Part shown: in pieces, positions 40,086 to 43,718 of the stretch
Numbering within the stretch: the first letter of the stretch is position 1
How the letters are laid out: each line of letters opens with the position of its first letter
From: Polaribacter filamentus
Lineage (GTDB): Bacteria > Bacteroidota > Bacteroidia > Flavobacteriales > Flavobacteriaceae
Length of the DNA stretch: 64,000 bases
Assembly: GCF_002943715.1 (NCBI RefSeq)
Contig: NZ_MQUA01000013.1
Coordinates: 613,001-677,000, forward strand
Direction: 5' to 3'
The notes under the pieces: generated by a model
What the model saw: only the letters and a program-made list of their open reading frames with translations
What the model was told of the DNA's origin: nothing
The model's database searches: none
Program-made: the position numbers and the translations under genes

Positions 40086-40499
40086 ATGGAAAAAAGTTTA
40101 AAAGTTTTATTAGTTGAAGATAATTTGATTGAAATAATGAAAATGAAAAGAACTATTTCGTTTTTAAATTTAAAGCATATGATACATGAAGCAAAAAACG
40201 GTGAAGAAGCACTTAAATTTTTAGAAAACAGCGCTAATATTCCTGATATTATTCTATTAGATTTAAACATGCCTAAAATAAATGGCATTGAATTTCTTAG
40301 AATCATAAAAGCAAGTGATGAATTAAAACATATTCCCACTATTATATTAACCACATCTAGTAATCAAAAAGATTTATTAGAATGCTATATAACAGGTATC
40401 TCTGGTTATATTTTAAAACCCTTAAAGTATGAAGATTACCTTAAAAAGATAGAAGTAGTTTTGTCTTATTGGAGCGTTAATGAGTTAATTCAGGCTTAA
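40086..40499 (+). CDS. CheY-like response regulator (Rcp1 type)
   Basis: 137 residues, a receiver domain only. VLLVEDNLIEIMKMKRT gives the acidic pocket, IILLDLNMPKING the phospho-acceptor Asp (about residue 60), LTTSS the Thr/Ser switch and YILKPLKYEDY the Lys. It lacks an output domain, as in phosphorelays where a receiver passes phosphate to an Hpt protein. It stands first in a cluster with a dead FIST kinase, an Hpt protein and a LytTR regulator. Confidence 0.9.
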   Translation: MEKSLKVLLVEDNLIEIMKMKRTISFLNLKHMIHEAKNGEEALKFLENSANIPDIILLDLNMPKINGIEFLRIIKASDELKHIPTIILTTSSNQKDLLECYITGISGYILKPLKYEDYLKKIEVVLSYWSVNELIQA

Positions 40500-40714
40500 A
40501 TAAAAGTAGTTTTATCCACTAAATTTTTAAAGTTAGTTCAAGAATAATCTTGTCTAGAAATAAGTATTAGAATTATTTCTAAATCTTGTTAAGATTTAAA
40601 AGTTCCTTCATCTAATTAATTGTACTTATCGCTTCTCTGAAAAGCTAATTTTACTTTAAAATTTAAGTGATATTTTATGGATTCCAAATGATAATTTATT
40701 CATGAACTATTAAA

Positions 40715-41144
40715 AGTATTTATAAGGCAGTTTTTAAAAAGAACCATTCTGGTTTTATTAAATTTAACAACGATCTAATAGCTAGAATTCTATCTATAGA
40801 AAATAATATCTATTTAAAAATAAGAGAAATTTCAATTAAATTTAAAATTCCAACAATTACTTTTGAAGAAGGTTTTAATTTTTTAATAATGGCATTAAAA
40901 TTTGAGATTCACAGTGCTATTTTAGTATCGTTTTTATGAATACTTTTTTAAATAGTTTAACTCATAGTTCATTATCAATATAGAAAAAACAAAAGAAGAT
41001 TTTACTCAAGTTAGCTATACCTTCCCAAATAAATTGGCTAAAACTAAAAAGGTAGCTTTAAAATTTATTTAATCCCTCGAAGAACAGAAAAATGAGAACC
41101 GTACAATTTATAAAAAACTGGAACTAAAAAATTTAAATTTTTAA
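40715..41144 (+). pseudogene. Decayed gene of unknown family within the two-component cluster
   Basis: About 75 codons are open from 40715 to a TGA at 40937, encoding AVFKKNHSGFIKFNNDLIAR, then ILSIENNIYLKIREISIKFK. A frame change follows, and a second open piece (from about 40979) reads VSYTFPNKLAKTKKVALKFI, a TAA, then SLEEQKNENRTIYKKLELKN to the stop at 41142-41144. Together they look like one protein of about 150 residues with several lesions. No family is recognised. The stretch 40500-40714 holds nothing I can support. Confidence 0.4.
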
Positions 41145-41145
41145 G

Positions 41146-42683
41146 CAAAAAACGTACTTTAAAAGTGACTTTACTTTTTGTGTTTGGGAACAGATTAATA
41201 TTACAAGATAAAAATATTTTGAGTAATACGCTTAGCGTCTGTTTTATGTAACTTTGATAAATCGGTTTAGCTATTGCCATTCTCTGTATTGTTTTAGGAA
41301 GGATGCTTTGTTGAAATTGTGATCGATTACTTGTAAACTTAACAGTTACAAATGCAGACAATATCGTAAACGCTGCAGAAATTTGCGCAACACAAGCTAT
41401 AGAACTCAGAAAAAATAAACCGGAACTTGCTATTTTAATTAGTTGCATTGGAAGGAAATTAGTACTAGATCAAAGAGAAGAAGAAGAAGAAGAAGAAGAA
41501 GAAGAAGAAGAAGAAGTTGGTAAAGATACCACAATTTGAGGTTTTTTGCCTTTGGAGAAATTGCGCCTTTTAACGCAGAAATGAATCGTCAACTGCATAA
41601 TCAATCAATAGTTATTACCCTAATTAGTGAATAATTAATCCACTTTTAAAAAGACAAATAAGAAAATTTTTACCTAAAGGCTTTCAGTGTAATAAAGATA
41701 TGCACGAATTTTTAGATGCCATAAATAAATCTTACACTACTTTAGACGACCAGTTTGTTATGCTTCGAAGGGCAGCGCCTATAAGTTCTGAAGAACTTTT
41801 TAGCTCTAACAAACAATTAAGAGAGGAATCAGAAGCACAAAAATAAATTATAACCAAACTTAATAGTGTTATAAATACACTAAAGTTTTATGTCTTAAAA
41901 AGTTGGTCCTAAATTAGTTGGTCAATATTTCTTGGAATTAGTTGAATTTATTGAAAATCAAATGAAAGAAATCATTGAAATAAATAAAGAAAAAGACAAA
42001 CTTGTATTAAATTTATAGCGTCAGAATGAAGAATTAAATGAATATGCGCACATGGTCTCTCTTGACTTAAAGTTCCCTTTGCAAAGTATCGATGCCCTTA
42101 ACCAGTTGGATGAAGGAAGATTATTTAGATGCTTTGGGTAAAGCTGGAAATGAAGTTGTAAATTTAATTAGAGAAAATATAGAGAAAATGGATACATTAA
42201 TTAGGAGGTATTTTAGAATACTCAACCATTGGTAAAGCAGAAAAAACACTTTATAATTTAGATTTAAATGTTTTGATGGATAACATTTTATGAACCATTA
42301 ATAATCCAGATGAAGTAAGGATTTTAATTCCAAATACGTTACCTATCATAAAAGGAGATCAGTATAGAGTGAAGCTTTTATTTTATAACCTTATTGATAA
42401 TGCTATAAAGTTTAATGACAAAAAGAGCGATGGCCTTGTAGAGATTAACTTTTTGAGTAACGATAAATATTGGCAATTTTTTATTACAGATATCGGTAAA
42501 GGCATAGAAAAACAGTATTTTGATAAAATATTTATAGCATTTCAAAAATTAGACAACGATTTTAATTCTACTGGTATTGGTTTATCAATAGTAAAGAAAA
42601 CTGTAGAAACACATCTAGGAGAAATTTGGTTAAAATCTAAACAGAATGAAGAAACTACTTTCTATTTTACATTATTAAAATAA
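41146..42683 (+). pseudogene. FIST-domain sensor histidine kinase, decayed
   Basis: Pieces of a FIST sensory domain remain: LLFVFGNRLILQDKNILSNT near the start, NAAEICATQAIELRKNKPEL, then GFFAFGEIAPFNAEMNRQLH near its end. A coiled coil follows (EIIEINKEKDKLVLNL), then the H-box, which reads AHMVSLDLKFPLQ, so the phospho-acceptor His is Leu. The ATPase domain is intact from 42369 (NLIDNAIKFNDKKSDG, ITDIGKGIEKQYF, STGIGLSIVKKTV). At least five in-frame stops and frame changes and an internal deletion in the FIST part are seen. It also carries a (GAA)13 tract. A true pseudogene. Confidence 0.8.
41477..41515 (+). repeat. (GAA)13 microsatellite
   Basis: Thirteen exact GAA units, in frame with the decayed FIST domain, where they code for 13 Glu after VLDQR. 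Normal FIST domains have only a few Glu here, so the tract looks expanded by slippage. Confidence 0.85.
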
Positions 42684-42685
42684 AT

Positions 42686-43009
42686 ATGGAAAAACCAAAT
42701 TTGTTATATATAGAGCAGCTGGCTAGGGGAGATGATTCTATTAAGAATACCTTGATAGAAGTCATTAAAAATGAGTTTCCAGGCGAAAAAGTAGCGTACT
42801 ATAAAAGTTTAAAAAATAAAGATTTTAAAAAAATTAAAGATAATGTTCATCGAATTAAGCATAAATTCAGTATTTTAGGACTCGAAAAGAGTTACAAAAA
42901 GGCTAATAATTTTGAACATAATCTTCGTCAAAATATTTTAAATTTAAAAGAAGAGCAAGATTTTGATGAAATTTTAACAGCAATTTCTAAATATTTAAAA
43001 ACAATTTAA
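42686..43009 (+). CDS. Histidine phosphotransfer (Hpt) protein
   Basis: 107 residues, all-helical. The Hpt signature is seen in KDNVHRIKHKFSILGLEKSY, where His near residue 59 is the expected phospho-acceptor followed by K-x-x-x-x-x-G/L. It starts 2 bases after the kinase stop and ends 4 bases before the LytTR regulator. Inferred role: pass phosphate between the CheY-like receiver, the lost kinase and the LytTR regulator. Confidence 0.8.
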   Translation: MEKPNLLYIEQLARGDDSIKNTLIEVIKNEFPGEKVAYYKSLKNKDFKKIKDNVHRIKHKFSILGLEKSYKKANNFEHNLRQNILNLKEEQDFDEILTAISKYLKTI

Positions 43010-43013
43010 GGCT

Positions 43014-43718
43014 ATGAATTGTATTATTATTGATGATGAAAAGATGGCGAGAGTTATAGTTAGAACTCTTTGTAATCAAATAGAATCATTAAATATCTTA
43101 CAAGAATTTACGAATGCTATTGAAGCAATTAAATTTTTGAACGAAAATCGTGTAGATCTTATCTTTTTAGATATTCACATGCCAAATTTTACTGGCTTAG
43201 ATTTTATAAAAACATTAAAAGATCCACCTAAAATAATCTTCACCACTTCAGATCCTAAGTTTGCGATAGAAGCTTTTGAATACGATTTTATTGTAGATTA
43301 TTTGTTAAAACCAATAGAATTACATCGCTTTGAAAAAGCAGTATTAAAGGCCGAAAAACTGCAACTTAGTAAAGCTAAAACTATTAGTACAAAAGGCTAT
43401 AAGGTTAAAAACGACTTTTATGTGAACATAGATAGGAGGTTAATAAAAATTGATTTATCAAGCATCTATTTAATTGAAGCGAAAGGAGATTATATAAATA
43501 TTAAAACAGAGGGTAAAAATTATGTGGTGCATTCTACCTTAAAAAAAATAGAAGAAAAATTACCAGATTCTTTATTTTTAAAAGTGCATCGTTCATATAT
43601 TATAAATGTTAAGAAAATAATAGATATAGAAGACAACAGCGTCTTAATTAAAAATGACGTTGTACCTGTAAGTCGTTCTAATAGGCCAGAGTTAATGAAA
43701 CGTTTAGATCTATTATAG
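43014..43718 (+). CDS. LytTR family response regulator
   Basis: 234 residues: a receiver domain (1-118; acidic IIIDDEKMARVI, phospho-acceptor in LIFLDIHMPNFTGLDFI, Lys in YLLKPIELHRF) and a LytTR DNA-binding domain (about 135-234; YLIEAKGDYINIKTEGKNYV, then FLKVHRSYIINVKKI). LytTR regulators bind direct repeats about two helical turns apart. It is fully intact although the kinase gene upstream is dead. Confidence 0.92.
   Translation: MNCIIIDDEKMARVIVRTLCNQIESLNILQEFTNAIEAIKFLNENRVDLIFLDIHMPNFTGLDFIKTLKDPPKIIFTTSDPKFAIEAFEYDFIVDYLLKPIELHRFEKAVLKAEKLQLSKAKTISTKGYKVKNDFYVNIDRRLIKIDLSSIYLIEAKGDYINIKTEGKNYVVHSTLKKIEEKLPDSLFLKVHRSYIINVKKIIDIEDNSVLIKNDVVPVSRSNRPELMKRLDLL

What the first reader, a model, noticed from the sequence alone, without database searches (positions are those of the whole stretch)
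40086..43718. Phosphorelay with a dead kinase but three intact partners
CheY-like receiver, Hpt protein and LytTR regulator are undamaged, while the FIST-domain kinase between them has several stops, a deletion and a His-to-Leu change in the H-box. Either another kinase feeds the relay, or its decay is too recent to show in the partners. The still open kinase ATPase domain (42369-42683) might be expressed alone.
Basis: partly seen in the sequence, partly recalled or inferred. Interest (0 to 1): 0.55.

Follow-up and report, generated by a model that had tools for sequence, protein, structure and literature searches.

The report
Nitric-oxide relay stripped of its sensors
In this Polaribacter-like marine bacterium, a signalling chain that relatives probably use to sense nitric oxide has lost both gas sensors and its kinase to mutation while the relay and gene-switch proteins behind them are still intact, a snapshot of a sensory circuit being dismantled from the input side.

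Summary
Observation partly confirmed. REC (40086-40499), Hpt-like (42686-43009) and LytTR regulator (43014-43718) are intact. In Flavobacteriaceae the full locus is REC/H-NOX/PAS-kinase/FIST/kinase/Hpt/LytTR, a probable dual nitric-oxide-sensor phosphorelay. Family searches find no H-NOX or FIST gene in this genome. Branch dN/dS: the partners (0.08-0.13) stayed more constrained than the kinase (0.21) or FIST (0.28) remnants and carry no lesion where about 10 would be expected; they outlived the kinase under selection. They are not untouched: REC and LytTR rank 3rd and 5th of 39 genes for elevated dN/dS, half of the operon's LytTR-like site is eroded, and two paralogous LytTR loci of P. glomeratus are destroyed here. 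The open ATPase ORF shows no sign of being kept. Best reading: input-first, stepwise dismantling, core kept for a time (perhaps fed by another kinase), possibly now decaying. By-product: a candidate small-RNA family beside LytTR paralogues.

The parts
39966..39996 (+). LytTR-type direct-repeat site upstream of the operon: first half ACAGTTCATCGATA (39966-39979) intact, second half (39987-39996) 4 of 10 bases off the relatives' GCATTTTAAC
   Evidence: alignment of 12 upstream regions; 0-mismatch hit in window; full two-half pattern with up to 3 mismatches found upstream of this operon's REC in 10 of 11 relatives, not in the window genome
40086..40499 (+). intact stand-alone CheY-like receiver (REC), first gene of the operon
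   Evidence: PF00072 E 1.1e-22; 91% identical to P. glomeratus
40500..41033 (+).
   Evidence: blastn 66% over 563 bp to G154 H-NOX region, E 4e-29; tblastn pieces in three frames with stops
41092..41631 (+). FIST / NosP-like pseudogene: frame change, stop, about 600 bp internal loss; contains an AGA repeat at 41476-41516
   Evidence: tblastn pieces vs P. glomeratus FIST; tandem repeat; start inferred from the DNA alignment
41634..42683 (+). histidine kinase pseudogene (4 stops, 3 frame changes, start codon lost, H-box His to Leu)
42369..42683 (+). open reading frame over the HATPase part of the dead kinase; no sign of selective maintenance
   Evidence: PF02518 E 2e-19; branch dN/dS 0.192 vs 0.212 for the rest
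42686..43009 (+). intact Hpt-like phosphotransfer protein; the only match to itself found in this genome at E 0.001
43014..43718 (+). intact REC-LytTR response regulator
   Evidence: PF00072 E 4.6e-18 and PF04397 E 1.8e-21; 91% identical to P. glomeratus
12618..13823 (+). intact GAF-HisKA-HATPase kinase of the related sequence group: a candidate alternative phosphate donor (inference)
   Evidence: domains; similarity to the lost kinases

Best explanation
The locus descends from a Flavobacteriaceae phosphorelay in which an H-NOX protein and a FIST (NosP-like) protein control PAS-type and bare histidine kinases, which phosphorylate the stand-alone REC; REC passes phosphate to Hpt and Hpt to the REC-LytTR regulator, which binds a direct-repeat site upstream of its own operon (gene set and order shown; NO sensing, phosphate route and autoregulation inferred from families and motif). 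In the window lineage the input side was removed step by step: PAS kinase gone, H-NOX decayed beyond an open frame, FIST internally deleted, kinase inactivated. REC, Hpt and LytTR remained under purifying selection after the kinase died, so they did something useful without it for at least part of that time, most simply by taking phosphate from another kinase; selection on them now looks somewhat weaker and the rest of the LytTR network of this genome is collapsing.
For: Seven-gene order in 15 of 29 named loci laid out (in one of them, L068, the FIST is only 27% identical); H-NOX, FIST and kinase identified by Pfam in members. Intermediates exist: G154 and G016 lack the PAS kinase at this locus but keep H-NOX; P. 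glomeratus and L042 lack an open H-NOX here but keep FIST and kinase; the window has lost all. No FIST and no HNOB match at E 0.001 in the window genome. Neutral fraction of the window branch: FIST 0.24, kinase 0.16, partners 0.06-0.08. Lesions: 7 in 345 kinase codons against 0 in 478 partner codons; equal exposure would predict about 9.7 (Poisson P about 6e-5, my arithmetic). Sites invariant in the 11 relatives that differ in the window: REC 1 of 83, Hpt 0 of 39, LytTR 2 of 148, against kinase 7 of 124 and FIST 12 of 62. First half of the LytTR-type site kept.
Against: With branch lengths free for each gene the kinase excess moved into branch length (4.8 vs 0.8-2.1 for the intact genes) and its dN/dS was not significantly raised (0.053 vs 0.035), and the rise in REC and Hpt was not significant. 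REC and LytTR are near the top of 39 genes (ratios 1.94 and 1.77, ranks 3 and 5, median 0.94; Hpt 1.15), so partial release is plausible; one flanking control (Sir2) is also raised (p 0.026). Some intact orthologues have as many private changes at otherwise invariant sites (e.g. 10 in the LytTR of G016, 16 in the kinase of G024). The second half of the operon site is eroded, and paralogous LytTR loci and the small-RNA copy are broken in this genome, which suggests that the output is failing too. No specific replacement kinase is identified. NO binding was not tested.
Confidence: 0.6

Rival explanations
1. The whole locus is dying. The partners are intact only because selection on them was lifted later than on the sensors and kinase, and no inactivating change has happened to hit them yet.
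For: Raised branch dN/dS of REC and LytTR, half-eroded LytTR-type site, second H-NOX module of P. glomeratus reduced here to two LytTR fragments around an IS4-family transposase, orphan Hpt-LytTR pair replaced by a piece weakly matching an IS1595 transposase, the only strong small-RNA copy with a damaged terminator, and 12 of 59 P. glomeratus ORFs with a window match split or mostly missing here.
Against: No lesion in 478 codons; dN/dS well below 1 (2lnL difference from 1: 93-257) and, for REC and LytTR, below the value for joint release with the kinase; 0 of 39 invariant sites changed in Hpt.
Confidence: 0.33
2. The relay proteins act without phosphate input: LytTR, autoregulated at its own site, works as a constitutive regulator in the unphosphorylated state, with REC and Hpt kept as phosphate sinks or by operon structure.
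For: First half-site of the LytTR-type box is intact. Hpt-LytTR units without an adjacent kinase gene are found elsewhere in the genus, e.g. loci L036, L038 and L156.
Against: The phospho-acceptor motifs of REC, Hpt and LytTR are intact, which a phosphate-free role would not need; REC and Hpt would be expected to decay first.
Confidence: 0.1
3. The open frame 42369-42683 makes a stand-alone ATPase fragment that still serves the relay.
For: Open over 104 codons with a HATPase match.
Against: Same branch dN/dS as the rest of the dead kinase (0.192 vs 0.212); the piece that contains it is 77% identical to P. glomeratus, like the broken pieces (72-78%); an Asn near the G1 box and two other invariant sites in it are changed (box name recalled); without the DHp helix there is no histidine to phosphorylate.
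Confidence: 0.03
4. Assembly or sequencing artefact, or a contaminant contig.
For: The assembly has 5.96% estimated contamination, and other genes in the window are also split.
Against: The window lies on a 3.19 Mb contig largely collinear with P. glomeratus; lesions include substitutions (His to Leu, four stops) and a ~600 bp loss, not only small indels; the neighbouring partner genes have none.
Confidence: 0.02

Closest known systems
NosP/NahK-type FIST-sensor systems (Pseudomonas, Vibrio, Legionella, Burkholderia)
   Same: A FIST protein encoded next to a histidine kinase that lacks its own recognisable sensor domain, feeding phosphate onward to a receiver or phosphotransfer protein (passages of PMC12570481 and PMC6769237 read).
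   Different: Here H-NOX stands beside FIST in one operon, the output is a LytTR DNA-binding regulator rather than c-di-GMP enzymes or LuxU/LuxO, and the FIST protein of P. glomeratus scores only 53.6 bits against the NosP equivalog cut-off of 450. In the window the sensors are dead.
H-NOX/HahK phosphorelays (Shewanella, Vibrio, Pseudoalteromonas)
   Same: H-NOX adjacent to a histidine kinase; PMC8738867 (passages and section 10 read) describes such relays and lists FIST among the genome neighbours of one group of H-NOX genes.
   Different: Flavobacteriaceae version with stand-alone REC, Hpt and LytTR, and two sensor-kinase pairs in tandem.
H-NOX chains 6bdd/6bde in the PDB
   Same: Nearest solved relatives of the H-NOX of G154 (E 6e-89; the record names the molecule as an aldolase). 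I recall, from no call, that they are the Kordia algicida H-NOX; the K. algicida locus here (L055) has the full seven-gene set.
   Different: Solved as an isolated sensor; the window copy is a pseudogene.
Hpt-LytTR units without an adjacent kinase gene in the same genus (L036, L038, L156)
   Same: Hpt and LytTR paralogues with no kinase gene between or beside them.
   Different: They are paralogues (59-63% LytTR identity); kinase remnants beside them were not searched for; in P. glomeratus and others a small-RNA-like gene lies downstream.

Membership tests
H-NOX (HNOB, PF07700) | match to the domain over its curated cut-off | tested here: met
   In relatives: L021 135.4 bits vs 25.5, P. glomeratus second module L155 135.4 bits, 11 of 36 genomes over the cut-off. 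In the window only a pseudogene remnant; no hit in its genome.
H-NOX (HNOB, PF07700) | haem and NO binding | not testable with these tools
   A YxSxR motif (recalled as haem-binding) is visible in the relatives' sequences; binding itself needs protein.
NosP (FIST NO sensor) | FIST_N plus FIST_C architecture | tested here: met
   Relative L023: PF08495 137.4 bits, PF10442 115.8 bits.
NosP (FIST NO sensor) | NCBIfam NosP equivalog cut-off (NF041558, 450 bits) | tested here: not met
   P. glomeratus FIST: 53.6 bits over residues 27-356, E 1.9e-14: a NosP homologue, not filed as NosP.
NosP (FIST NO sensor) | haem-dependent NO sensing and control of the adjacent kinase | not testable with these tools
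   needs purified protein
Hpt domain (PF01627) | curated cut-off and HxxK phospho-His motif | tested here: inconclusive
   19.2 bits against a cut-off of 24.6, E 0.0015; VHRIKHK present in the window and in 11 of 12 aligned orthologues in all.
LytTR response regulator | receiver plus LytTR DNA-binding domain over cut-off | tested here: met
   PF00072 65.8 bits and PF04397 76.6 bits.
LytTR response regulator | direct-repeat binding site near its target | tested here: inconclusive
   Conserved repeat upstream of the operon in relatives; second half eroded in the window; binding not assayed. The LytTR repeat consensus is recalled.
four-step phosphorelay (HK-REC-Hpt-RR) | phosphotransfer HK to REC to Hpt to LytTR | not testable with these tools
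   gene set and acceptor motifs only

The most novel reading that the evidence does not exclude
A natural rewiring caught in the act: a Polaribacter relay that lost both NO sensors and both kinases kept its REC-Hpt-LytTR core under selection as a kinase-less relay supplied in trans by another kinase (for example the GAF kinase at 12618-13823); and in this clade LytTR regulators of this type control a new family of two-hairpin small RNAs with a G-rich loop.
Probability: 0.3. Interest if true: 0.65.

Novelty: new variant of a known kind. Interest (0 to 1): 0.45.

Why it matters
It offers a step-by-step case of how a multi-input phosphorelay is taken apart from the sensor end, with sister genomes at intermediate stages, and makes testable whether a relay core can outlive its kinases by taking phosphate from elsewhere. 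The relatives show a dual H-NOX plus FIST operon with a LytTR output in marine Flavobacteriaceae, Tenacibaculum included, and a candidate small-RNA family beside the paralogous LytTR genes.

Tried and rejected
Single FIST-kinase gene: rejected, the two are separate genes in the loci where both were found. ATPase ORF kept by selection: rejected. Region downstream of REC as mere spacer: rejected, it is an H-NOX remnant. Free branch lengths per gene gave unstable estimates for the pseudogenes; I then used branch lengths shared across the six intact genes and a 39-gene comparison. One iqtree run gave no output and was repeated. An H-NOX remnant in the REC-FIST gap of P. glomeratus was sought and not recognised. 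Regulon search with the operon box: 15 hits in 11 relatives, 10 of them upstream of the operon's REC; the other 5 were one beside a LytTR paralogue at a small-RNA gene, one in a small-RNA array, one inside a gene and two upstream of similar ORFs of at least 468 aa. Idea that the orphan locus kept its receiver in the window genome so that two half-broken relays complement each other: rejected, the preserved 149-aa gene there is an Lrp/AsnC-type regulator. Sigma-70 promoter scan: no more sites than shuffles. No solved structure matches FIST convincingly by sequence (one chance-level hit, E 0.054). No structure prediction was run.
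Full report
WHAT IS THERE. The window is part of a 4.28 Mb, 15-contig genome (99.96% complete, 5.96% contamination) in the Polaribacter/Tenacibaculum group; the nearest named relative by LytTR is Polaribacter glomeratus, 91%. ORFs for a CheY-like receiver (40086-40499), an Hpt-like protein (42686-43009) and a REC-LytTR regulator (43014-43718) are intact. Between them the longest plus-strand ORF is a 104-aa HATPase fragment at 42369-42683.

WHAT THE GAP WAS. In relatives the same position holds separate genes. In 15 of the 29 named loci that I laid out of the 80 fetched (L041-L069) the order is REC, H-NOX, PAS-type histidine kinase, FIST, histidine kinase, Hpt, LytTR; in one of these (L068) the FIST is only 27% identical to the reference. 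By record title the 15 include Polaribacter, Tenacibaculum, Kordia, Lacinutrix and Winogradskyella. Pfam confirms HNOB (135.4 bits), FIST_N and FIST_C (137.4 and 115.8 bits) and HisKA/HATPase for members. Mapping relatives' proteins on the window shows three pseudogenes: H-NOX at 40500-41033 (66% DNA identity over 563 bp to G154, pieces in three frames); FIST at about 41092-41631, with residues ~43-281 reduced to 114 bp, a frame change and a stop; and the kinase at 41634-42683 in four pieces with three frame changes and four stops. The kinase has also lost its start codon, and its H-box reads SLDLKFP, where 11 of 11 relatives have His. The AGA repeat at 41476-41516 lies where a relative has an acidic stretch.

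STAGES OF LOSS. G154 and G016 lack the PAS kinase at this locus but keep H-NOX, FIST and kinase. P. glomeratus and the MAG locus L042 keep FIST and kinase but have no open H-NOX in this operon; L042 has a recognisable H-NOX remnant, while in P. glomeratus none was recognised in the gap. P. glomeratus has a second module with an intact H-NOX (L155). The window genome has no HNOB match and no FIST match at E 0.001. Among 166 genus genomes, 75 have a match to the P. glomeratus FIST at E 1e-12, some of them distant paralogues. In the listing only the window genome's match at this locus has a stop; a second, divergent copy in G016 also has stops, and the match in G152 covers only residues 1-297. 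Remnants too decayed to reach the threshold would not be seen.

ARE THE PARTNERS STILL SELECTED? I fitted a branch codon model on six taxa, tree ((window, P. glomeratus),(L042, G154),(L043, G004)), groups supported at 95-100 in a 12-taxon tree. With neutral branch lengths shared across six intact genes, window-branch dN/dS against background was: REC 0.080 vs 0.026 (p 0.005), Hpt 0.132 vs 0.056 (p 0.014), LytTR 0.079 vs 0.025 (p 0.0003); flanking DUF6495 0.024 vs 0.043, Sir2 0.087 vs 0.047 (p 0.026), SpoU 0.071 vs 0.049 (names); kinase remnant 0.206 vs 0.060; FIST remnant 0.282 vs 0.059. Read as a mixture, the kinase has been neutral for about 16% of the branch and FIST for 24%, the partners for 6-8%. 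If the partners had been released with the kinase, REC and LytTR should be near 0.18 (my arithmetic); their intervals exclude that, and Hpt is borderline. The kinase has 7 lesions in 345 codons; at the same exposure the partners' 478 codons should show about 9.7, and they show none (P about 6e-5, my arithmetic, assuming equal rates). With gene-specific branch lengths the picture is weaker: the kinase excess appears as branch length, and of the partners only LytTR is significantly raised.

CONTROL. For 39 window genes, the three partners among them, with orthologues in P. glomeratus and G154 (of 65 window ORFs; 48 and 40 reciprocal hits), the ratio of window-branch to other-branch dN/dS has a median of 0.94; REC (1.94) ranks 3rd, LytTR (1.77) 5th, and Hpt (1.15) is within the upper half. 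So the partners are constrained, REC and LytTR less than usual. Of sites invariant in the 11 relatives, the window changes 1 of 83 in REC, 0 of 39 in Hpt and 2 of 148 in LytTR, against 7 of 124 in the kinase and 12 of 62 in what is left of FIST. More distant intact orthologues also have private changes, some more than the window.

THE OPEN ATPASE FRAME. Codons 245-348 of the kinase have the same window-branch dN/dS (0.192, CI 0.116-0.290) as codons 1-244 (0.212) and include changes at invariant sites, among them N292I near the G1 box (box name recalled). I find no sign that it is kept.

THE OUTPUT SIDE. Upstream of REC a direct repeat resembling LytTR sites (consensus recalled) is recognisable in the 12 aligned genomes: CMRTTCRTCGAYA, seven bases, GCATTTTAAC. 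With up to 3 mismatches it occurs upstream of this operon's REC in 10 of 11 relatives searched; the window genome has no hit because its second half has diverged, although the first half is perfect (39966-39979). Other LytTR loci of P. glomeratus are destroyed here: the second H-NOX module is represented at the syntenic place only by two LytTR pieces around an IS4-family transposase, and the orphan Hpt-LytTR pair is replaced by a piece weakly matching an IS1595 transposase (21.9 bits, below the cut-off of 27) at an otherwise syntenic locus. Of 67 P. glomeratus ORFs from the syntenic region, 59 have a window match; 8 of those are split into pieces and 4 are mostly missing, and 3 more have a single stop (one further short match is cut by the window's end). 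The genome is losing genes broadly.

WHO COULD FEED THE RELAY. Kinases close to the lost PAS kinase are scarce: at E 1e-15 P. glomeratus has 15 matches and the window genome 8, among the latter the dead kinase itself. The best other match, C13:2386662-2387357, is open only over some 208-236 codons and has stops over a longer stretch. The next, the GAF-HisKA-HATPase kinase at 12618-13823, is intact. Naming it as a donor is a guess, not a result.

VERDICT. Shown: three pseudogenes, intact partners, conserved ancestral gene order, and constraint on the partners after the kinase began to decay (in the shared-branch-length model). Inferred: NO as the signal, the His-Asp-His-Asp route, autoregulation, and supply by another kinase. 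The simple reading 'too recent to show' is disfavoured; slow, input-first dismantling with a core that outlived its kinase is the best account, and final decay may have begun.

SIDE RESULT. Following the LytTR-type box led to a short RNA-like element: a 7-8 bp hairpin around a G-rich loop (TTATAAGTTGGGGGATTTATAA) plus an intrinsic terminator. At up to 2 mismatches the core has 93 hits in 48 of 166 genus genomes, against 4 hits of the reversed control pattern (my tally). Of 45 copies examined (not a random sample; 40 with distinct cores), 16 lie within 400 bp downstream of a LytTR gene, and 16 have TTC[AG]TCG within 140 bp upstream (first-order Markov shuffles: mean 1.0, maximum 5). Mean folding energy is -23.5 against -9.7 (sd 0.5) for shuffles. 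Nine of 17 consensus pairs show two-sided changes, all in the terminator stem; in the first hairpin the clearest two-sided change is in an outer pair (T-A to C-G in 6 of 40, with one base bulged). No Rfam match at E 0.1 in four loci holding copies. The window genome has one strong copy, at C14:180635-180707 (66.3 bits), with a damaged terminator and the LytTR gene upstream gone. Against a general link: of the 80 named loci around LytTR relatives, only L058 and L106 have a model hit at E 0.1 (E 0.003 and 0.07), both just downstream of LytTR; other weak hits are at window 34836-34901 and L021:5534-5600. Two paper searches listed nothing on such an RNA by title (1 paper listed; 12 of 25,118 listed; listings only, none read).

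LITERATURE. Passages of PMC8738867 (also section 10 in full), PMC6769237 and PMC12570481 were read. PMC8738867 notes FIST genes among the neighbours of one group of H-NOX genes, so H-NOX/FIST proximity is known. No paper on this relay in Flavobacteriaceae was seen in the listings; that is no proof of absence.

Noticed in passing
window genome C14:180635-180707 (L217:6635-6707); L156:6121-6199; arrays of three in L218, L219, L220, L223: Candidate small-RNA family: G-rich-loop hairpin plus terminator, often directly downstream of a LytTR gene and sometimes in tandem arrays (in L219 between lipoyl synthase and cystathionine beta-synthase-like genes); no Rfam match in the four loci tested.
   Followed up: partly
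window 1-64000: High pseudogene load: 12 of 59 P. glomeratus ORFs with a match are split or mostly missing here, e.g. around 19524-20109, 23321-23868, 26797-28432, 45631-45843, 51796-53183 and 57601-59624.
   Followed up: partly
window 36635-39387: Outer-membrane TonB-receptor-type ORF (PF25183, PF00593) whose C-terminal end seems to continue in another frame (39217-39387, by eye); it has no counterpart between the flanking P. glomeratus genes.
   Followed up: partly
L169:6206-7920 (window genome C13): Second-module LytTR gene split by an IS4-family transposase ORF; the H-NOX, receiver and kinase of that module gave no match in this 14 kb stretch.
   Followed up: partly
window 41476-41516: AGA trinucleotide repeat (13.7 copies, 100% matches) inside the FIST pseudogene where a relative encodes an acidic stretch; looks like slippage expansion.
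   Followed up: no
L021:5269-5547 (L002:2885-3163): A 92-aa STAS-domain ORF (PF01740) lies downstream of LytTR in relative G004; the window has only 57 bp between LytTR and the Sir2 gene.
   Followed up: partly
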